The position numbers and the translations under genes are program-made. Positions 7,362-36,361 of a stretch of 64,000 bases of DNA are shown piece after piece. Numbering within the stretch: the first letter of the stretch is position 1; the number at the start of each line of letters is the position of its first letter. This stretch comes from Clostridia bacterium (GTDB taxonomy: Bacteria; Bacillota; Clostridia; Saccharofermentanales; Saccharofermentanaceae), in assembly GCA_016281535.1 (NCBI GenBank), contig JAEEIT010000129.1:24812-88811 (forward strand). Direction: 5' to 3'. The notes below the pieces were generated by a model that saw only the letters and a program-made list of their open reading frames with translations, was not told the DNA's origin and did not search any database.

Positions 7362-8103
7362 ACGGGAGAAGATGATGACCCTGCAGCCGCACCAGAAGGC
7401 GTATGTCCAGCGTGCGTGCTTCAGCAGGGAAGGTGCGACGGTCTATCTCGGACATCTGGACCTGATGACCTGCTTCGAGAGAGCGGCCAGAAGAGCGGAA
7501 CTTCCGATCCTGTATTCCCAGGGGTATAACCCCCGTCCTATGATGGTCTTCGCGCTTCCGTTAGGTGTCGGGATCGAGTCGAGAAGCGACTATCTCGACG
7601 TATCACTCGAAGTGCCCTACGATCCGGTGCTTTTTACCGAGGAGATGAATCGTTGCCTTCCGGAAGGTCTTCAGATCCTGAGGTCGAAGCAGATCCCGGA
7701 ACCGAAGGACAGCATTATGTCCATCGTGACGACGGCGACGTACCGGTTCGAAGCGACCGGGATCCGGGAAGCGATGAACGATGCGATGAAGAGGGAGACC
7801 CTGATCGTGACGAAGATCGCGAAGGGGAAAGAGAAGCAGACCGATATCCGGCCACTGCTCCTGTCGATCAAGAAGGACGGGGGCGAAGATCCGGATGCGG
7901 TGGAGTTCTTCGCCAGCGCGGGCTCGGAGAAGAATGTCCGGCCGGACCTGATCCTCAGCAGCCTTTCCCTGTACTGCGGGATGGACAAAGAAACTGCCGA
8001 CAGTGCCAGAGTCATCCGGACAGGGCTGTTCTCCGGGAAGTATCCGAAGATCTTGCCGATCGATGAGACACCGATCCGTAAGTTCGAAGATTTCACGAAT
8101 TGA
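7348..8103 (+). CDS. TIGR03936/DUF2344 radical-SAM-linked protein
   Basis: A 251-residue protein of the DUF2344 family, which nearly always sits behind a TIGR03960 radical SAM gene. Signatures are YLGHLDLMTCFERAARRAELP and YSQGYNPRPMMVFALPL in the first 70 residues. GAGAGGTG precedes the ATG, and the start lies inside the upstream gene, so the two are translationally coupled. The pair often lies near ribonuclease G or rplU in Firmicutes, but not here. A joint role in RNA or ribosome modification is plausible but unproven. Confidence 0.85.
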   Translation: MLQSEREKMMTLQPHQKAYVQRACFSREGATVYLGHLDLMTCFERAARRAELPILYSQGYNPRPMMVFALPLGVGIESRSDYLDVSLEVPYDPVLFTEEMNRCLPEGLQILRSKQIPEPKDSIMSIVTTATYRFEATGIREAMNDAMKRETLIVTKIAKGKEKQTDIRPLLLSIKKDGGEDPDAVEFFASAGSEKNVRPDLILSSLSLYCGMDKETADSARVIRTGLFSGKYPKILPIDETPIRKFEDFTN

Positions 8104-8165
8104 CTTTCCATTTCGGAAGGTTTCGTGTATGATTTTCTTATGTGCCGAAAGGAGTAATAGAGAAG

Positions 8166-10946: not shown

Positions 10947-12788
10947 ATGTCGAGCATAGTCGGGAAACCATTACACGAGGGCATTCGTTATGAGACGATG
11001 CGGGACCTGATCCTTGGATCGAAGGAGAAATATGCGACGAAGGATGCTTTCATCTTCAGAAGAAAGCCGACGGAAGCGGAGATCCATAAAACATATAATG
11101 ATTTTACATCCGATGTAGAGTACCTGGCGGAGGCCATCTCTCTTCACGGTTTCCAGGGCGGGCACCTGGGTGTGGTCGGTGAGAATGCCTATGAGTGGAC
11201 GGTGTCCTACTCGGCGATATTAAGTTCCGGTTCTGTGGGCCTTCCGCTGGACAGACTCCTTCCGGAACATGAGCTGGTCAGTCTCCTTGTCAGAGGCAAG
11301 GTGGAAGTGCTGTTCTATCACCAGAAACATCACGAGATGATCCTGAATATTGCGAAGAACGAGAAAGAGAACGGGGTTCTGGTGAAGCAGTATGTCTGCA
11401 TGTGCACCGAGTACATCGCACCGAATCTGGAATTCCCGAAGGACGATCCCCGGTTCGTGGACATTCAGGACTGGCTCGAAGAGGGAAGAAAGTCCGTGGA
11501 GAGCGGATCGAGCATTATGCGACGTGTCGCCATCGATCCGGACGAGACCCGGATCATCCTCTTTACGTCCGGTACGACGGCTATGAGTAAGGGCGTTATG
11601 CTTTCCCATAAGAACATCATGACGAATGTGTATGCGATCTCCACGACGCTGACACTGAATCCCGGAGAGAGGATCTTCTCGATACTTCCTCTGCACCATA
11701 CTTTCGAGAATACCTGTGAGTATTTCATGCTGGCCAGAGGATGCTGTATCTGTTTCTCGGATGGACTTCGTTATATCGTGAAGAACCTGAATGAGTGGCA
11801 CGTCGAGGCCTGTATCTCGGTGCCGCTTCTGTTCGAGAATATCCACGGCAAGATCAAGAGCGGTATTGAAGAATCGGGGAAAGCCGGTCTTCTTTCCATG
11901 ATGATCCCGGTCAGCAATTTCCTGAGAAAATTTAAGATCGACCTGCGGCGTGTATTCTTCTCGTCGATCATCAAGAAACTCGGCGGTCATCTGCGCCTCA
12001 TCGTTATCGGCGGCGCCGGGATCGCGAAGAACTATATCGAAGATTTCAATAACTGGGGATTCGAGTTCCTGATGGGCTACGGCCTGACCGAGACCTCTCC
12101 GGTTATCGCCGTGACGACGAATAAATGTAATGTCTACGGATCTGTCGGCAGACCGATCACAGGTGTAGAAGTGAAGATCGACACAGACAGTCCGAAAATT
12201 GGGACAGTTGGTGAGATACTATCTAGGAGTGACTGTGTCATGCAGGGTTACTACGAGAATCCGGAAGCTACGGCAGAAGTGCTCGAAGAAGACGGATGGT
12301 TCCACACCGGAGATATGGGTTATCTCGATAAGAAGGGATGCCTGCATATCACCGGCCGTGTGAAGTCGATGATCGTGCTTACCAACGGAAAGAAAGCTTT
12401 CCCGGAAGAGATGGAATCTCTTCTGAATAACATCCCGGGCGTCAAGGAGGCTTTCGTCTGGGGATGTAAGGACGATAAGGATGCTGTGGACATTTGCGCC
12501 AAGCTCCTTATCGACCGGAAAGTCATCGGTGAGAACCTCCCGATCCCGGATACGACCGCAGGTGATAATGCGGTACGGGAGTATCTGAGCGCGAAGATGA
12601 AGGAAGTCAACCATCAGATGCCGTCGTATAAGTCGATCCATTATTTCGTCTTCTCGGAGACGGAGATGGTGAAGACCACGACGCTGAAGGTGAAGCGTCC
12701 TTCCGAACAGCAGGCGATCGAGGCAACACTCGAGAAGGCCGGCACGACAATGAAAGCAGCGAACGGACAGAATCTGGATACCCTCTGA
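10947..12788 (+). CDS. Long-chain acyl-CoA synthetase (AMP-forming)
   Basis: A 613-residue ANL-superfamily ligase that adenylates a fatty acid and transfers it to CoA or another thiol. Visible motifs are IILFTSGTTAMSKGVMLSH (P-loop, near residue 203), GYGLTETSPV, GWFHTGDMGYLDKKG, and TNGKKAFPEEME near the C-terminal hinge. I chose ATG 10947 because CGGAGG precedes it; the track's earlier starts lie around the promoter. Given the neighbouring ACP, acyl-ACP synthetase activity is also possible. Confidence 0.85.
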   Translation: MSSIVGKPLHEGIRYETMRDLILGSKEKYATKDAFIFRRKPTEAEIHKTYNDFTSDVEYLAEAISLHGFQGGHLGVVGENAYEWTVSYSAILSSGSVGLPLDRLLPEHELVSLLVRGKVEVLFYHQKHHEMILNIAKNEKENGVLVKQYVCMCTEYIAPNLEFPKDDPRFVDIQDWLEEGRKSVESGSSIMRRVAIDPDETRIILFTSGTTAMSKGVMLSHKNIMTNVYAISTTLTLNPGERIFSILPLHHTFENTCEYFMLARGCCICFSDGLRYIVKNLNEWHVEACISVPLLFENIHGKIKSGIEESGKAGLLSMMIPVSNFLRKFKIDLRRVFFSSIIKKLGGHLRLIVIGGAGIAKNYIEDFNNWGFEFLMGYGLTETSPVIAVTTNKCNVYGSVGRPITGVEVKIDTDSPKIGTVGEILSRSDCVMQGYYENPEATAEVLEEDGWFHTGDMGYLDKKGCLHITGRVKSMIVLTNGKKAFPEEMESLLNNIPGVKEAFVWGCKDDKDAVDICAKLLIDRKVIGENLPIPDTTAGDNAVREYLSAKMKEVNHQMPSYKSIHYFVFSETEMVKTTTLKVKRPSEQQAIEATLEKAGTTMKAANGQNLDTL

Positions 12789-23924: not shown

Positions 23925-25265
23925 ATGAAGCGGCTTACTTTCAAATCCGGATTTATATCCAGAGATGGACTGGACTTCGTCAATCAGAGGAAGTTCATGC
24001 GTGAAGCCCTGCTTGAGGTATGCTCTCCGAAAGAAGTGACCATTCCCATGAAGCAGCATGTCGGCACACCATGCGAACCTGTCGTTTCCGTCGGGGACAG
24101 TGTGGCGATGGGCGATCCTGTCGGCATGCCTTCGGATATGGGAGGCGTCCCTGTGCATGCAAGCATCTCCGGTACGGTCACGAGAATCGATACGATCCGG
24201 CTTCCCAATAAGGTCAGCTGCAAAGCAGTGACGATCAAGAACGATCTTCACCGCCGTGTTTCTCCGCGTATTACGCCAAGGAAAAACTACTCGTCGCTTT
24301 CGATCGAAGAGATGACGAAGCTTCTGTGGGCTTCCGGGATCTGCGGCATGGGCGGAGAAGGTGTACCGACGTACACGAAGTGCATGCGTGCAAGAAATGC
24401 CGGTGTGGATACACTTCTGGTCAACTGTACACAGAGTGAACCGTTCCTTTCCTGCGATCTTCACCATGTCCGGGTCAATGCGGCGAAGGTACTTCAGGGG
24501 GCCATGGCGCTGAGCGGGATCTGTCACGTGAAGAGAGTCCTGTTCTGTATTGAAGATACGTGGACAGATGAGATCGTGGCCCTCAACCAGGCGGTAGAGA
24601 ATGCGAAAGGACGCTATCTGGACAGAAAGATCGAAGTGCGCTTGTTTAAACCGAGATTCCCGCAGGGCTGTCAGCAGCTCCTGATCAAGGCACTCTACGG
24701 CGTCGAGCTCGAACTGGGAAGACAGCCTGAAGAAGCCGTAAAGGCAGTACTGTTTAACGCGTCGACATGTTTCGCTTTCTCGGAGATGATCGAGAAGAAC
24801 CAGCCACTGACATCACGTATCGTGACGATATCCGGCGATACGATCACGGGACATAACGTGCTCGTGCCGATCGGTACCAGTGTGGCGGAGATCCTGGAGA
24901 GAGTTCCGGGTGCCCATAGCGCCCAGCGTGTCGCATGGGGCGGGGCCATGACGGGAGTTGCCATCGACCGGCTGGACGTACCGATCATCAAGACCACCGC
25001 TGCGATTACGATCATCCGGAAATTCGAACCGCCGAGAACGAACTGCATTCACTGCGGTTCCTGTATCGGGGCCTGTCCCGTAGGACTTGCTCCTGTCCTT
25101 CTGAACCGTCTGATCGAACTGGGGCAGACCGAGCAGCTGAAGTCGGAATCCGTGGAACAGTGTATCGCCTGCGGTGCCTGTTCGTATGTATGCCCGGCCG
25201 GCATCGAACTGTCGACGAATATTGCGAAAGCGGCCCATCGGGCAAGAAGGAGCGGACGGGTATGA
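23925..25265 (+). CDS. rnfC: RnfC-like electron transport subunit
   Basis: A 446-residue RnfC homologue, the peripheral NADH/FMN and iron-sulfur subunit of the Rnf complex. Two intact [4Fe-4S] motifs lie at the C-terminus: CIHCGSCIGACP and CIACGACSYVCP. The N-terminal barrel-sandwich region (GDPVGMPSDMGGVPVHASIS) and PQGCQQLLI are present. The FMN/NADH loop, normally GGAGFPTHVK, reads GGEGVPTYTK, and the usual NGAECEPYL reads NCTQSEPFL, so nucleotide binding may be altered. It overlaps rnfD by an ATGA. Confidence 0.85.
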   Translation: MKRLTFKSGFISRDGLDFVNQRKFMREALLEVCSPKEVTIPMKQHVGTPCEPVVSVGDSVAMGDPVGMPSDMGGVPVHASISGTVTRIDTIRLPNKVSCKAVTIKNDLHRRVSPRITPRKNYSSLSIEEMTKLLWASGICGMGGEGVPTYTKCMRARNAGVDTLLVNCTQSEPFLSCDLHHVRVNAAKVLQGAMALSGICHVKRVLFCIEDTWTDEIVALNQAVENAKGRYLDRKIEVRLFKPRFPQGCQQLLIKALYGVELELGRQPEEAVKAVLFNASTCFAFSEMIEKNQPLTSRIVTISGDTITGHNVLVPIGTSVAEILERVPGAHSAQRVAWGGAMTGVAIDRLDVPIIKTTAAITIIRKFEPPRTNCIHCGSCIGACPVGLAPVLLNRLIELGQTEQLKSESVEQCIACGACSYVCPAGIELSTNIAKAAHRARRSGRV

Positions 25266-26227
25266 AGAGAAAACAGCTCGCTCCCCATATTCATGCCGAT
25301 CAGCCGGCCTCGGTCCGCTACATCTATGTGCTGCTGGCCCTTCTTCCGGCCTGGATCGGTGCCGTATTCTACTATGGGATCCGTGTGGTCGTACTCTCGG
25401 CCGTTTCCATGGGATGTTTCTTCCTTTCGGACTACATCGTCTCCAGACGCATGTATCCGGAACAGTCATACTATGTGGACTTAAGCTCTCTGATCAGCGG
25501 ACTTCTCCTGGTTCTGATGGTCCCGGCGTCCACATCGGTCTGGGCGGTCCTTCTGGCCTCCCTCTTCGGATCGCTTCTCGTGAAGCAGGCATTCGGAGGC
25601 GTGGGAACGAATATCTTAAATCCCGCACTGGCATCGCGGGCATTCCTGGAATTCACATTTCCTGTCCAGATGACGGCGGTGGAAGCCCCGTTTTCCGGGC
25701 TGTGGCATCTTTCCTCGCTTCTGAACGGAAAGCCGGCCGCGCAGATGGTCTCCACAGAGACTTCCGTTCCGTGGATGCATATTCTCTCCGGACGGATCAC
25801 CGGCATGGCAGGCGTCACGTCGATCGTGCTCCTTCTGATCGGTCTTCTGATCCTTCTTGAGAGAAGACTGTTCCGTTTCGAAGCGCCGGCGGGATACTTC
25901 CTGGTCCTGATATTCGGATATGTTCCTTTCTACTGGGATGCGCTGCGGTTCGATACCTTTTTCGTCTGGCTCTGTACTGGCGGACTTCTTCTGGTGGGGA
26001 TCTTCATGTTAAATGACTATTCCACGATCCCGATGGATCCGAAGGGAAGGTTTCTGTTCGGGCTGATAGCCGGTCTTCTGACGCTGGTGATGTACCGCTT
26101 CGGAAACAGTACCTATGCGATGGTATTCCCGGTTCTGATGATGAATATGACGACGCCGATCTTCGATCACTATCTGCGTCCGCGTGCTTTCTCCAAGCCG
26201 AGCTGGTACAGGGAGGTGGAAGAATGA
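25262..26227 (+). CDS. rnfD: RnfD-like membrane subunit
   Basis: A 321-residue integral membrane protein with about eight to ten hydrophobic segments and the RnfD landmark FGGVGTNILNPALASRAFL (residues 111-129). Where canonical RnfD has the flavinylation sequence D-x-x-S-G-A-T, the aligned stretch reads QMVSTETSV (about 161-169): the last threonine remains but Asp, Gly and Ala are replaced. The start ATG overlaps the rnfC stop and the stop overlaps the rnfG start, so the cluster is translationally coupled. Confidence 0.82.
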   Translation: MKRKQLAPHIHADQPASVRYIYVLLALLPAWIGAVFYYGIRVVVLSAVSMGCFFLSDYIVSRRMYPEQSYYVDLSSLISGLLLVLMVPASTSVWAVLLASLFGSLLVKQAFGGVGTNILNPALASRAFLEFTFPVQMTAVEAPFSGLWHLSSLLNGKPAAQMVSTETSVPWMHILSGRITGMAGVTSIVLLLIGLLILLERRLFRFEAPAGYFLVLIFGYVPFYWDALRFDTFFVWLCTGGLLLVGIFMLNDYSTIPMDPKGRFLFGLIAGLLTLVMYRFGNSTYAMVFPVLMMNMTTPIFDHYLRPRAFSKPSWYREVEE

Positions 26228-27444
26228 CCCGGTCTTTCTTTAAAGGTGTGACGATACATGCGGCCATCTGTGTGCTGGTCACGCTGACCTTTCTTTTCTC
26301 GTGCCTGAGTTATGCCCGGTCCGTGGCCCGTTCCGGACAGCAGGAAGAATACCGGGAACTCTACGGTTCTCTTCTCATGGCATCGGAGTACCGGTCACTT
26401 AAGACGGAAGTGCTGGACAATCACGAAGATATACTGGCGGTGTATAGTGCATATGACGAATCGGGACGTCTCATCGGGTATATTCTGGATGTGCAGACAC
26501 AGAACGCAGACGGCATGATCCATACACAGATGAGTATCAGCGAAGACGGAGAGAACCTGATGAATATCCGGGTGGTCGAGCAGAGCGGAATCGGAGAAGC
26601 TCTGACCGAGGAGCAGATGGATACGCTCCGCACCCAGCTTAAGGGACAGCGTATTCCGGTTTCAGTCCGTAAAGACCTGCCGACCGAAGCCTATAAGCAG
26701 ATGGACTATGACCCGCTCCTGGGGCTTCACGATGGCGTGTACTACGCACAGGCAGAGAATGCCGCATCGGACGGGTATAAGGATTACTGTGAGATCGAGG
26801 TCAGTGGCGGCCGTATCGTACGTGTGGAGTGGGATGCGGAAAATGAACTGTCCCACACCCGTTCCCAGGACTCGATCAGTGGGGAGTATAAAGTAAGCGG
26901 AAATATCTGGGCCGAGCAGTCCTATCGCCTCTGTAACCGTCTGGTGCTGGTACAGGATCCGGTGAAGCTGGCGATGAAGTCTGACGGAAAAACAGAGATC
27001 ATCGACGGTGTGACGATCGATATTTCCACTTTCGTCCAGCTCGTGAACGACTGCATCGCGAACTCGCGTGCTTCCTTTACGAAAGAGCAGTACCTGAAGA
27101 ATCAGAGCGGTACGGAGGATCCGGACGACGATGCGTCTTCGGAGACGACGGCGCCGCCGGAGGAGATCACGCCTGCCGTAACGGATGAGACGAAAGGAGC
27201 GCCGGAACCGACGACGGCTGCTGACACGGAACCTTCCGAACTCGGCGTCATCGGCGGAGAAGACGGTGTGGTCTCGGGAGAAGGAGATAACATCCTCTCG
27301 GATAGTGTGGACGGCATTCCATTAAGTGAGATCCGAACCTATATCGACGGACTTCCTGAAGCGCAGGCACAGACGGCGGCACTTCTGTCTTCGGTAAATG
27401 AGGCGTATAAGTTTATGCGTGAATATTTGAACTGGGTAGGCTGA
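26224..27444 (+). CDS. rnfG: RnfG-like FMN-binding-domain protein
   Basis: A 406-residue protein: one N-terminal membrane helix (about 8-29), an RnfG-like domain (DESGRLIGYILDVQTQ ... NIRVVEQSGI), then a second FMN_bind-like unit (GLHDGVYYAQAEN ... EVSGGRIVRVEWD). A long acidic Ser/Thr/Pro-rich linker (about 285-350) and a short C-terminal helix follow. The covalent FMN site, normally D-x-x-S/T-G-A-T, reads DGVTIDIS (261-268) and has no acceptor threonine in place. It is about twice the length of a usual RnfG. The symbol is by homology; redox function is doubtful. Confidence 0.7.
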   Translation: MTRSFFKGVTIHAAICVLVTLTFLFSCLSYARSVARSGQQEEYRELYGSLLMASEYRSLKTEVLDNHEDILAVYSAYDESGRLIGYILDVQTQNADGMIHTQMSISEDGENLMNIRVVEQSGIGEALTEEQMDTLRTQLKGQRIPVSVRKDLPTEAYKQMDYDPLLGLHDGVYYAQAENAASDGYKDYCEIEVSGGRIVRVEWDAENELSHTRSQDSISGEYKVSGNIWAEQSYRLCNRLVLVQDPVKLAMKSDGKTEIIDGVTIDISTFVQLVNDCIANSRASFTKEQYLKNQSGTEDPDDDASSETTAPPEEITPAVTDETKGAPEPTTAADTEPSELGVIGGEDGVVSGEGDNILSDSVDGIPLSEIRTYIDGLPEAQAQTAALLSSVNEAYKFMREYLNWVG

Positions 27445-27445
27445 T

Positions 27446-28573
27446 ATGAAGGAGAAAGGCTATATTTCGACAAAACAATACAGGATCCTGCTTTCCTTCG
27501 CGCTGCTGATGATCTTCACCACCAGCTCGCTTCCGGCGTTCTGCGGAGCCTGCGTACAGATCATAGTGTTTCTTCTTCTCAACCGGGAAGTGTTCCTCCG
27601 CGTCTCCAATAAACGGATCAGCTGGGGCGTGTTTCTCATTACCGCAGCACTTATGGGGGAGGGAGTTTATCTTCTTTCTCCATATCTTCCCGCATCGTTC
27701 TCCAGCGAAGGATTCTTCCTTCTTCCTGCTTCGACATTTCTTTTCCTGAGTGTGCCGATGTTCGACTATTTCGATGCGGAACATCAGATCTCTCTTCCTG
27801 AGATCTGGCGGGGATTCTTCTATTTCGTCCCGGCCGGAATCATCATATCGATGCTTCGGGAACTGTTCGGAAATGCATCGGTGTGCGGAGTCTATTTTGA
27901 GTCGCTTACCCGGTATGAGATCCGGTTCTTCGCGCATACGTCGGGGTCGGCACTTCTGGTCCTGGTGTCCCTTCTTTTCCTGTACTTTCTTAAGAACGGG
28001 GAGTCGGATACGCCGACCGTCATGGATACGAAGGAACAGCGTTCGAGGATATTCCGCCCGATCTCCCTTGCTAAGGAGAAACGGTTCCTGCTTCTGAGCC
28101 TTTGTCTTCTGATTTATGTCCTGCTGTTCGGGGCGATCGGGATCCTTCTGATCTTTCACGTGCCGTCCTTCCTGCATCAGCCGGCCCATATCGTCCTTCT
28201 GTCGTCGGTCGTTTCACCTCTTTTATTCACGCTGATCGTGAAAGGCCTGAAGCAGAGTGAAACGCTTGACGAGTATAACTATGTACCCTTCCTGGGTGTC
28301 ATTACGACCTCGATCCCCCTGATATTCTATATGCGCGATCTGGTCCTGCCGTCGGATGTTTCGACGGGGATGAGGATCCTCTGGTGGAGTGCTCTGACCG
28401 TCGGGGTCTGGCTCTTCTCCGTTGCCGTGTTCGCATATTGCCGGGTGATCAACGGAAGGCTTTTGTTCGGTAAGCAGCCCCGCTGTCTGGAGGGGATCCC
28501 GTTGATCGTGCTGCATGTCCTTCTGGCCATGATCGTGTTCATGCCGTGGACGCAGGTCCTGATCAATATCTGA
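27446..28573 (+). CDS. RnfE-RnfA-like fused membrane protein
   Basis: A 375-residue protein with about ten or eleven hydrophobic segments. Residues 91-148 align by eye to RnfE (MLRELFGNASVCG against the usual GAIREILGNGTLFG), and residues 279-360 to RnfA (YVPFLGVITTSIPL against YLPLITTNCAVL; LEGIPLIVLHVLLA against the last helix). The halves therefore look like RnfE fused to RnfA. The cysteines that hold the [2Fe-2S] cluster in RnfA/RnfE (the TNC motif) are STF and TTS here. It starts one base after rnfG and is last in the cluster; no rnfB follows. Confidence 0.6.
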   Translation: MKEKGYISTKQYRILLSFALLMIFTTSSLPAFCGACVQIIVFLLLNREVFLRVSNKRISWGVFLITAALMGEGVYLLSPYLPASFSSEGFFLLPASTFLFLSVPMFDYFDAEHQISLPEIWRGFFYFVPAGIIISMLRELFGNASVCGVYFESLTRYEIRFFAHTSGSALLVLVSLLFLYFLKNGESDTPTVMDTKEQRSRIFRPISLAKEKRFLLLSLCLLIYVLLFGAIGILLIFHVPSFLHQPAHIVLLSSVVSPLLFTLIVKGLKQSETLDEYNYVPFLGVITTSIPLIFYMRDLVLPSDVSTGMRILWWSALTVGVWLFSVAVFAYCRVINGRLLFGKQPRCLEGIPLIVLHVLLAMIVFMPWTQVLINI

Positions 28574-32662: not shown

Positions 32663-33538
32663 ATGAGCATAGTACTTGCCGCTTCCTGGGGCGCACAGTT
32701 CTGGGAAGCTTTTAAAGAAGAATTATCGGAGGTCTTCGGCGTATTCACCGGTAAGGCGAATATCGGCGAAGAGATCCGTGGCGCGATCCTTCAGTGGAGG
32801 GGATATATCCCCGGTACCGGTGAGCGGATTCCGATCACGGACGCCATCATTGTCACATGGGTCGCCATGCTTGTGGGTATCCTTCTGTTCTGCTGGATGG
32901 GCGGAAAGAAAGAACGGATCCCGACGAAGAGACAGGCCGTGATGGAATCCCTTATCAACATTCTGTTCGGTGTATGTAAGGATTACGGATTAAACGAGGA
33001 ACAATCGGAGAAGGTTATCCCGATGATCGGTTCGATCGGTATTTTCCTGATCTCCTGTAACGTGATCTCGATCTTCCATATCCCACCGCCGGCGAAGAAT
33101 ATCGCATTCCCGTTTGCCATGGCACTGTTTGCGATCTTCTACGTTATTTTCATGTCGATCCGTTTCGTCGGAGTGAAAGGATTCTTCCGGTCCTTCACCG
33201 ATCCGATGGGCTTCATGGTCCCCTTTAAGATCATCGACTTTTTCATTAAACCGATCTCTCTGGCGCTCCGTCTTTTCGGTAACGTATTCGGTGCGTTCAT
33301 CCTGATGGAATTCCTGAGCATCGTATGTCCGATCATCGCACCGGGTGCATTCAGTCTCTGGTTCGATCTTATGGATGGTGTCCTTCAGGCCGTCGTATTC
33401 TGTTACCTGACGACTTCCTATATCGGTGAAGTGGTCGAGAGTGCCCATGCGACGAAAGAGAGAAACGAGGAGAAAGCAAAACAGAAAGCTCAAAAGCAGG
33501 AGCAAGCAGCACCGCAGGAAGCGGAGCATGCAGCCTGA
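32663..33538 (+). CDS. atpB: ATP synthase F0 subunit a
   Basis: A 291-residue membrane subunit forming the ion half-channels. The essential arginine is in ISLALRLFGNVFGAF, and about six hydrophobic segments can be traced. The C-terminus carries an unusual Lys/Glu/Gln-rich tail of about 30 residues (KERNEEKAKQKAQ). AAGGAGG lies 16 bases before the ATG, a long spacing, but no better start is seen. First gene of the ATP synthase operon; no atpI is present. Confidence 0.93.
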   Translation: MSIVLAASWGAQFWEAFKEELSEVFGVFTGKANIGEEIRGAILQWRGYIPGTGERIPITDAIIVTWVAMLVGILLFCWMGGKKERIPTKRQAVMESLINILFGVCKDYGLNEEQSEKVIPMIGSIGIFLISCNVISIFHIPPPAKNIAFPFAMALFAIFYVIFMSIRFVGVKGFFRSFTDPMGFMVPFKIIDFFIKPISLALRLFGNVFGAFILMEFLSIVCPIIAPGAFSLWFDLMDGVLQAVVFCYLTTSYIGEVVESAHATKERNEEKAKQKAQKQEQAAPQEAEHAA

Positions 33539-33830: not shown

Positions 33831-33849
33831 TGATAACGAGGTGAAAGAC

Positions 33850-34467
33850 ATGTATTTTGCAGCATTTAAGTTGCTTTCCGGAGCGAATGTGATGAAGCTT
33901 TCTACTTCGCTTGTGCGCCTGGCGGAAGATGCGGGTGAATCCAGTTCGCTTCTTTCCCCGGATCAGGTGGCGCACTATCTGGTGACCGGACTTGTGACGA
34001 TCGTCAATCTTCTGGTCGCCTACCTGATCTTGAAGTTCGCACTCTTTAAGCCCCTCATGAAGGTCATGAAGGGAAGGAAAGAAGCCATCGAGAAGGAACT
34101 GTCCGAGGCGGAAGAGAAGAACAAGAAGGCATCGGAGAATCTGGAAGAATCCATCAAGCGGGTCGATGCTTCCCACGAAGAAGCCATGCAGATCATCGCG
34201 GATGCCAGAACTCAGGCAGAGAAGCAGTCGGAGACGATCATCGAGACTTCCAGAAAGGAAGCACAGGAGATCCGCGACCGCGCCGAGGAAGATGCGAAGC
34301 GCACCCGTAAGGCGATGCTTGAAGAGATGAAAGACGAAGTGGCAGACCTGGCGGTTTCCATCGCGGGCCATGTCTTAAGTAATTGTGATGCGAACGCCGA
34401 CGAAGCGTCCATTCGCGCGAAGGCGAAAGAGGAACTGGATTCGGCAGAGGTGACGACCGGTGAATAA
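33850..34467 (+). CDS. atpF: ATP synthase F0 subunit b
   Basis: A 205-residue peripheral-stalk subunit: an extra N-terminal stretch of about 40 residues, one membrane helix ([20 protein letters not shown]), then a long charged coiled coil ([20 protein letters not shown] onward). I chose ATG 33850, with GAGGTG six bases upstream, over the track's GTG 33841. The gene ends inside the start of the delta-alpha fusion (8-base overlap). No delta N-terminal domain is fused here, unlike the mycobacterial b-delta protein. Confidence 0.9.
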
Positions 34468-36361
34468 CAATAGTGGTTTTGAAGTCATACGGATCGTAAC
34501 TGCTTCGGATGATATGCCACCGGAGAAAGTGGCACTGATCGCCCGCCGTTTCGCGGAGCATCTCAAGATCCAGGGATATACGATCCAACAGGAAACAGAT
34601 AAGTCGCTCATCGGCGGCTATGTGATCTATGCCCAGGGCACGAAGTACGATTACAGTGCCGCGGGCCAGCTGTCGCGTATCGGGCGGCATCTGAAGACGG
34701 ACCGTGAGAGCGATATCAAGGAGGAACTGGATGGTGCTTCCGAGATCCACCGTTCTCTGTCCGATGCACTTAAGGATTTTAAAGAAAGGCCGGCGATGCT
34801 GTTCGAGAGCGATGAGCTCTGGGAAGGTGAATCTCCGGAACAGACGAATAAGCGGGAACAGATCCTTACGGATTTTGTGAAGGCGGCATCGGTCGAACAG
34901 GTGGGCCGGGTCATCTCGGTCAGCGACGGTGTAGCCAAGGTAAGCGGCCTGGAGAATTGTGTAGCCAGTGAGCTGATCATGTTCTCCGAGACGTCCTATG
35001 GTATTGCCATGAACCTGGAGACAGACAGCGTCGGTGTCGTTCTTCTGAACGAATGCCGGGATGTGGTCGAGGGCGTGATGTGCCGCCGTACCGGTCTTAC
35101 GGTTTCGGTACCGGTCGGACATGGTATGCTCGGACGTGTCGTGGATCCGCTTGGTAATCCGATCGATGGTAAAGGAATCATCAGAAGTACGAGCAGAAGA
35201 CCGATCGAGACGCCGGCTCCGGGTATCGTAGCGAGATCTCCGATCTGTGAACCGCTTCAGACGGGCATTACGGCCATCGATGCCATGACTCCGATCGGAA
35301 GAGGACAGCGTGAGCTGATCATCGGTGACCGCCAGACCGGTAAGACCGCGATCGCCATCGATACGATCATCAATCAGCGCGGGAAGAATGTACTTTGTGT
35401 CTACGTGGCGATCGGCCAGAAGATGGCCAATATCGTCCAGGTGAAGAATACACTTGAGCAGCATAATGCTCTCGAATATACCGTTATCGTGGCCGCGAGT
35501 GCCTCGCAGCCGGCATCGCTGCAGTATATTGCTCCTTATGCCGGATGTGCGATCGCGGAAGAATTCATGTATGCCGAGCATCAGGATGTGCTGATCGTAT
35601 ACGATGACCTGTCGAAACATGCGCAGGCATATCGTGCGATCTCGCTCCTTCTGCGCCGTCCGCCGGGACGTGAAGCGTATCCGGGCGATGTCTTCTATCT
35701 GCACTCCCGTCTTCTGGAACGTTCGGCGAAATTGTCGGACGAGCAGGGAGGCGGATCCATCACGGCCCTTCCGATCATCGAGACATTAAGCGGAGATATC
35801 TCGGCGTATATTCCGACGAATGTGATTTCCATCACCGACGGACAGATCTATCTCGAGTCCGAGCTGTTCTTCGCGGGTCAGCGTCCGGCCATTAATGTGG
35901 GTCTTTCTGTTTCCCGTGTCGGTGGTGCCGCGCAGACGAAAGCCATGAAGAAAGTGGCGGGCCCTCTTCGTATCAGTCTGGCGCAGGCCCGTGAGATGGC
36001 GGCCTTTGCCCAGTTCGGTTCCGACCTGGATCCGAATACACAAAGACAGCTCAAGCGCGGCGTGATCCTCAATGAGATTTTGAAGCAGGAGCAGTACTCG
36101 CCCATGCAGATGGATGAGCAGGTCGTGATGCTTTATCTCGCCACGAATGAGAAACTGACGTTCCTGGATAAGGAAGATGCGAAAGAATACGTCACGGAAT
36201 TCCTCCAGCGTATGACGGTCCTGCATCCGGACATCATGAAGAGAATCACGGATACCCGTGTGCTGGATGACGATACGAAGAAAGAGATCGATGAGATCGA
36301 AGCGGAGTATCACGCGATGTTCGTGGCCGAGCATAAGGAATACCAGCAGCGCGAGGATTAA
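34460..36361 (+). CDS. atpA: Fused delta C-terminal domain-alpha subunit of ATP synthase
   Basis: A 633-residue protein, about 130 longer than a normal alpha subunit. Residues 10-80 match the C-terminal domain of the delta subunit: [20 protein letters not shown], then [11 protein letters not shown] and [15 protein letters not shown], equal to the delta pattern D-x-x-L-I-G-G ... D-x-S-x-x-x-x-L-x-x-I. A linker (80-130) leads to a complete alpha subunit: [17 protein letters not shown], Walker A GDRQTGKT near 290, and the arginine finger in [10 protein letters not shown]. The GTG start has GAGGTG upstream and overlaps atpF. No separate atpH exists in the operon, and the delta N-terminal domain is missing. 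Confidence 0.93.

What the first reader, a model, noticed from the sequence alone, without database searches (positions are those of the whole stretch)
34460..36361. ATP synthase alpha subunit carries a fused delta C-terminal domain; no separate delta gene
Seen: one open frame whose residues 10-80 match the delta-subunit C-terminal domain ([20 protein letters not shown]), joined by a linker to a complete alpha subunit; the operon runs a-c-b-(delta C-alpha)-gamma-beta-epsilon. Known: F1Fo needs delta, whose N-terminal six-helix domain sits on the alpha N-termini and whose C-terminal domain holds subunit b; mycobacteria have a b-delta fusion. Inference: here the b-binding domain is tied to alpha directly and the N-terminal domain is dispensed with. 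Because F1 has three alpha chains, there would be three delta C-domains for the b stalk, which raises the stoichiometry question: two may be idle or bind extra partners. I know of no description of this arrangement.
Basis: partly seen in the sequence, partly recalled or inferred. Interest (0 to 1): 0.87.

Follow-up and report, generated by a model that had tools for sequence, protein, structure and literature searches.

The report
ATP synthase with three stalk-docking sites
In a gut bacterium the piece that anchors the ATP synthase's outer stalk is built into each of its three alpha subunits instead of being one separate subunit, the same design engineers used in 2025 to make an enzyme with up to three stalks that makes ATP at unusually low voltage, and here it is shown to be widespread and to have arisen more than once.

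Summary
Window 34460-36361 is one 633-aa frame: a delta/OSCP C-terminal domain (Pfam PF00213 positions 107-172, above cut-off), a linker and a complete alpha subunit. The operon is a-c-b-(deltaC-alpha)-gamma-beta-epsilon. The window's genome has no other OSCP match. No delta N-terminal domain was found in 23 genomes of the genus, and five near-complete ones each have a single atpA, the fused one. So all three alphas of each F1 must carry a stalk-docking domain.

The arrangement is not undescribed. Ueno et al. [quoted passage not shown]

New here: the fusion occurs in at least 15 family-level groups of the phylum and is not one clade (AU p 7e-62). The domain is under strong purifying selection. 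The alpha N-terminal helix that binds delta's N-domain has decayed. No fused family has a Na+-type c-subunit (0/15, against 15/24 with canonical delta). All eight genomes examined with both enzymes pair a fused H+-type with a canonical Na+-type.

Best reading: a proton F-ATP synthase with more than one peripheral stalk. Stalk number is inferred, not shown.

The parts
32663..33538 (+). atpB, Fo subunit a (291 aa), carries the RLFGN motif around the essential arginine
   Evidence: PF00119 121 bits
33564..33830 (+). atpE, Fo subunit c (88 aa); ion-site letters I-F-E-S-I-Y, i.e. proton type, no Na+ ligand set
   Evidence: PF00137 67 bits; motif comparison; nearest solved c-rings chloroplast and cyanobacterial
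33841..34467 (+). atpF, stalk subunit b (208 aa), overlaps the next start by 8 bases
   Evidence: PF00430 82 bits
34460..36361 (+). fused delta C-terminal domain - alpha subunit (633 aa, GTG start)
34478..34699 (+). delta/OSCP C-terminal (b-binding) domain, residues 7-80; dN/dS 0.062 within the genus
   Evidence: PF00213 107-172; hhalign 94%; selection
34706..34744 (+). variable linker, residues 83-95; dN/dS 0.58
   Evidence: alignment A1
34745..34894 (+). helical segment with acidic insert, residues 96-145, in the place of the alpha N-terminal helix; consensus PEEIS.IIK.QI not retained
   Evidence: dN/dS 0.097
34895..36349 (+). complete alpha subunit body (beta-barrel, nucleotide-binding, C-terminal domains)
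   Evidence: TIGR00962 740 bits; PF02874, PF00006, PF00306
36368..37300 (+). atpG, gamma (310 aa)
   Evidence: PF00231 263 bits
37312..38700 (+). atpD, beta (462 aa)
   Evidence: TIGR01039 736 bits
38710..39162 (+). atpC, epsilon (150 aa)
   Evidence: PF02823 92 bits

Best explanation
This is a proton-type F1Fo ATP synthase in which delta has been reduced to its b-binding C-terminal domain and fused to the N-terminus of every alpha subunit. Shown by sequence: the fusion, the loss of delta's N-domain, a single atpA per genome (hence three docking domains per F1), purifying selection on the docking domain, and a c-subunit without the Na+ ligand set. Inferred: without delta's N-domain, which normally sits on the three-fold axis and limits the enzyme to one stalk, two or three b2 dimers can bind, each bringing its own a-subunit to the c-ring. 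Ions per ATP would then be the number of c times the number of a, divided by 3, two to three times the usual value. That lets the enzyme make ATP at very low proton motive force or, running backwards in a fermenter, export more protons per ATP against a small gradient.
For: Fusion and operon. No other OSCP in the genome. No delta N-domain in 23 genus genomes. One atpA, fused, in five genus genomes 94-99% complete. Docking domain dN/dS 0.062 against 0.051 for alpha and 0.58 for the linker. The engineered deltaDN-alpha fusion of Bacillus PS3 gives up to three stalks and three a-subunits, H+/ATP 5.8, halved threshold pmf, and the authors conclude that delta's N-domain sets stalk number; a deposited fusion chain is PDB 9jc1. 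Alpha N-terminal helix, conserved in canonical enzymes (median 38 bits), scores at background in fused ones (median -4; null mean -7). Fused alphas do not form one clade (AU p 6.6e-62; starred branches force at least 5 changes). Fused enzymes are proton-type in 15 of 15 families; in all 8 genomes checked with both enzymes the fused is proton-type and the canonical Na+-type.
Against: No stalk count exists for any natural fused enzyme. In the engineered enzyme cryo-EM showed mostly one stalk (51%) with 8% triple, though gels and energetics suggested about two. The operon encodes one a and one b, whose relative amounts are unknown. AlphaFold models were too poor to use. The proton/Na+ assignment rests on sequence letters, and the link with fusion could reflect shared ancestry among H+-type enzymes rather than function.
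Confidence: 0.6

Rival explanations
1. Single-stalk enzyme: the fusion only replaces delta as the b anchor; one b2 dimer binds and the other two docking domains stay empty or serve assembly and stability.
For: All solved natural F-type enzymes have one stalk (stated in the paper). Most engineered particles in cryo-EM had one or none. Fo subunit supply could limit stalk number.
Against: Nothing visible would block the other two sites once the N-domain is gone; engineered fusion fills up to three. Repeated loss of the N-domain, the part that enforces one stalk, is unexpected if one stalk is the goal.
Confidence: 0.28
2. Mixed enzyme: an internal start or proteolysis also yields plain alpha, so only one of three alphas carries the docking domain and one stalk results.
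For: The window has an ATG at residue 113 with a GAAAGG six bases upstream (sequence).
Against: That ribosome site is present in 2 of 17 genus sequences scanned; over all fused genes 9 of 49 have any such site, below the 23% found in control stretches. The Met itself is absent in L050 and L053.
Confidence: 0.06
3. A diverged, unrecognised N-domain protein, or delta from another operon, still caps the F1.
For: Delta N-domains are fast-evolving, so a very diverged one could be missed; genus g2 has a second operon with normal delta.
Against: A profile of 21 N-domains finds nothing in 23 genus genomes while finding relatives' at E 1e-29 or better; the alpha helix it would bind has decayed also in g2 fused alphas.
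Confidence: 0.05
4. Assembly or annotation artefact, or a decaying gene.
For: The window's assembly is fragmented and 80.75% complete.
Against: Same fusion in dozens of independent assemblies and families with strong purifying selection.
Confidence: 0.01

Closest known systems
Engineered deltaDN-alpha fused FoF1 of Bacillus PS3 (Ueno et al. 2025, PMC12229609; fusion chain PDB 9jc1)
   Same: Delta residues 105-178 fused in front of alpha, N-domain removed, no separate delta; here delta profile 107-172 fused in front of alpha.
   Different: Man-made with a short linker and the alpha N-terminal helix kept; here a 50-70-residue linker region with a conserved helical insert, and no functional or structural data.
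Natural delta-alpha fusion of Acidaminococcus fermentans and UniProt G4Q3K6, A0A1I2C5T3 (noted in the same paper)
   Same: Fusion with the N-domain missing; multi-stalk structure predicted.
   Different: Three sequences named in a discussion paragraph; their sequences were not compared here. The window belongs to an order of Clostridia and the fusion is found here in at least 15 family groups with repeated origin.
Mycobacterial b-delta fusion
   Same: Delta joined to a neighbouring stator subunit.
   Different: Joined to b, full delta kept, one per enzyme (general knowledge; b/delta fusion in Gordonia and Mycobacterium also in PMC5709465).
N-type ATPases
   Same: No delta gene, order a-c-b-alpha-gamma.
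   Different: N-ATPases have beta-epsilon first, a long E-like b and no OSCP domain (PMC5706428); the window's subunits miss the alternate F1F0 cut-offs.

Membership tests
F-type ATP synthase (bacterial F1Fo) | Complete set a, b, c, alpha, beta, gamma, epsilon in one operon | tested here: met
   Pfam and NCBIfam matches for all seven
F-type ATP synthase (bacterial F1Fo) | Separate full-length delta subunit (six-helix N-domain plus C-domain) | tested here: not met
   Only the C-domain, fused to alpha; no N-domain in 23 genus genomes
deltaDN-alpha fusion enzymes (Ueno et al. 2025) | OSCP C-domain in frame at the N-terminus of alpha, N-domain absent | tested here: met
deltaDN-alpha fusion enzymes (Ueno et al. 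2025) | No unfused alpha to dilute the fusion | tested here: met
   Own genome has one alpha; one atpA in each of five genus genomes
deltaDN-alpha fusion enzymes (Ueno et al. 2025) | More than one peripheral stalk and a-subunit per complex | not testable with these tools
   Needs cryo-EM, native MS or H+/ATP measurement
N-type ATPase | beta-epsilon-Q-R-a-c-b-alpha-gamma order and scores above the alternate F1F0 models | tested here: not met
   Order a-c-b-alpha-gamma-beta-epsilon; alpha 605 bits against cut-off 750.5, beta 561 against 752
Na+-translocating F-ATPase | c-subunit Na+ ligands (Q or E at position 32, E65, S/T66, S/T67, Y70 in Ilyobacter numbering) | tested here: not met
   Window c reads I-F-E-S-I-Y

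The most novel reading that the evidence does not exclude
Natural multi-stalk ATP synthases are common in anaerobic Bacillota and have evolved several times, specifically on proton-type enzymes. In genomes with two F-ATPases a canonical single-stalk Na+ enzyme works beside a two- or three-stalk H+ enzyme geared for very low proton motive force.
Probability: 0.5. Interest if true: 0.9.

Novelty: new member of a known kind. Interest (0 to 1): 0.7.

Why it matters
Textbook rotary ATP synthases have one stator stalk and one a-subunit, and ions per ATP vary only through c-ring size. If these natural fusions carry two or three stalks, a second way of changing gear exists in nature and is widespread in gut anaerobes, which would change how their energy budgets are calculated. 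Genomes that encode both a canonical Na+ enzyme and a fused H+ enzyme make the question directly testable inside one cell.

Tried and rejected
AlphaFold models of the N-terminal part and of the whole fusion had mean pLDDT 45 and 41 because the permitted alignment was shallow; only the strand-helix-strand-strand-helix order of residues 7-79 agrees with the delta C-domain, and no fold search was run on them. My first delta HMM contained mis-framed sequences; it was rebuilt from 53 checked deltas with the same conclusions. A first scan for the alpha helix looked only 45 residues upstream; widened to 75, with the same result on average but showing that some fused alphas (L112, L108, L099) keep a diverged helix. 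Internal translation start: not supported. N-ATPase membership: rejected.

Full report
What is there. The frame at 34460-36361 (+) starts with GTG, overlaps the end of atpF by 8 bases and encodes 633 residues. Residues 13-78 match Pfam OSCP/delta positions 107-172 at 28.9 bits, over the curated cut-off of 22.3; residues 133-621 match atpA at 740 bits. The match is far beyond chance: 26.1 bits for the real segment against at most 5.9 in 2000 shuffles, and the best of 467 open frames of the window. Profile-profile comparison aligns the segment to the C-terminal domain of canonical clostridial deltas (94% probability, E 1.2e-7) and not to their N-terminal domain (2%). The operon is a-c-b-(deltaC-alpha)-gamma-beta-epsilon.

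No delta elsewhere. The genome (2.45 Mb, 80.75% complete) has no other OSCP match even at E 10. A profile of 21 canonical N-domains finds nothing in the 23 genomes of the genus, several 98-99% complete, but finds the domain at E 1e-32 and 1e-29 in two relatives with a normal delta. Five genus genomes of 94-99% completeness each have a single atpA, the fused one. Hence each F1 of this organism should hold three delta C-domains. The window's genome also encodes a V/A-type ATPase on another contig.

Functional constraint. Within the genus the delta C-domain evolves as slowly as alpha (dN/dS 0.062 and 0.051), the linker at residues 83-95 almost freely (0.58), and residues 96-145, a helical stretch with an acidic insert, slowly (0.097) (alignment).

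What it works like. Ueno et al. 2025 (PMC12229609, read) deleted the N-domain of delta and fused its C-domain to alpha in Bacillus PS3. The enzyme formed up to three peripheral stalks, each with its own a-subunit; subunit ratios and energetics indicated two on average, H+/ATP rose from 3.0 to 5.8 and the threshold pmf halved. They concluded that delta's N-domain, on the three-fold axis, is what restricts the enzyme to one stalk. A deposited chain for such a fusion came up independently in the PDB search with the window segment (9jc1). Their Discussion also reports natural fusions lacking the N-domain in Acidaminococcus fermentans and two UniProt entries and predicts multi-stalk enzymes there.

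How widespread. In the window's order the fusion is in all 23 genomes of the genus and in most genomes of families f1, f3 and f4; genus g2 of the same family has it too, and in 22 genomes there it stands beside a second operon with a normal 177-aa delta (both operons read). A survey of 243 Clostridia genomes and 61 across the phylum, with follow-up searches, gives the fusion in at least 15 family-level groups. On trees of alpha cores the fused forms fall in several places: one clade is rejected (AU p 6.6e-62 on 56 rows); starred branches force at least 5 changes on the first tree and at least 3 on a second with more fused rows. One clade (f17, f12, f26 and neighbours) holds what look like intermediates: separate delta with a weak N-domain (L136, L137, L143), truncated delta of 153 aa (L093), nearly full delta fused to alpha, 679-691 aa (L101, L102, L110), and the N-less fusion (L099, L100). 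The direction of change is not shown.

Two further regularities. First, canonical alphas begin with a helix of consensus RPEEISSIIK.QI (median 38 bits in a leave-one-out profile), the region that contacts delta; in N-less fusions it scores at background (median -4 bits; background mean -7, 99th percentile 2.5), although a few keep a diverged version. This fits loss of the N-domain's binding site, also in g2 where a normal delta exists in the cell. Second, none of 15 fused families has the Na+ ligand set in subunit c, against 15 of 24 families with canonical delta (Fisher p 9e-5; families are not fully independent); in all eight genomes read with both enzymes, the fused or full-fused one is proton-type and the canonical one Na+-type. 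An acidic residue at the position of Q32 is known from the Na+ enzyme of Fusobacterium nucleatum (PMC3692424; its abstract, seen, reports a novel Na+ motif, and the title names it two-carboxylate; the exact position is from my own knowledge), so Q and E were both counted as Na+ ligands.

Mechanism offered. Shown: three docking domains, no N-domain, proton-type c. Inferred: two or three b2-a units per enzyme and a correspondingly higher H+/ATP ratio. In fermenting anaerobes with a weak proton gradient this would allow ATP synthesis at low pmf or, in reverse, high-flux proton export per ATP. The strongest rival is that only one b2 binds. The possibility that plain alpha is also made from an internal start was tested and not supported.

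Limits. No structure of usable confidence could be predicted. The window's organism is known only by relationship: nearest named records are ruminant-gut MAGs labelled Clostridiales, Mageeibacillus or Ruminococcaceae. Only open-licence papers could be searched.

Noticed in passing
L130:7744-8553 (G307) and L106:7665-8561 (G370): Delta subunits with an ordinary N-domain followed by two C-terminal (b-binding) domains in tandem (270 and 299 aa), upstream of an ordinary alpha: possible natural two-stalk enzymes by another route; no description was found.
   Followed up: partly
L088:7805-8143, L091:9175-9447, L094:7626-7865, L096:7795-8037, L097:7970-8254: Stand-alone delta C-domain genes of 80-113 aa between b and alpha, without an N-domain; these too could dock more than one stalk. 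None has a Na+-type c.
   Followed up: partly
L101:7771-9843, L102:7656-9692, L110:6146-8182: Nearly full-length delta fused to alpha (679-691 aa) in families f26 and f17, while a relative of f17 (L136) still has separate genes.
   Followed up: partly
L109:1367-2125 and L162:970-1731 (family f41): A delta C-domain at the end of subunit b (253-254 aa) in a second, divergent F-ATPase with a Na+-like c-subunit; these genomes also have a normal delta operon.
   Followed up: partly
L103:7075-7572, 7680-8123, 11516-11926 (G353): Three stand-alone delta-C-domain-like genes (137-166 aa) that lie near AAA/VWA-type genes and not near ATP synthase genes: the domain seems to serve in another context.
   Followed up: no
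window 23925-28573: RnfC- and RnfD-like genes followed by two large frames without Pfam match (406 and 375 aa), about 4 kb upstream of the atp operon; a second, stronger RnfD is on another contig of the genome. It looks like an extra or diverged Rnf cluster.
   Followed up: partly
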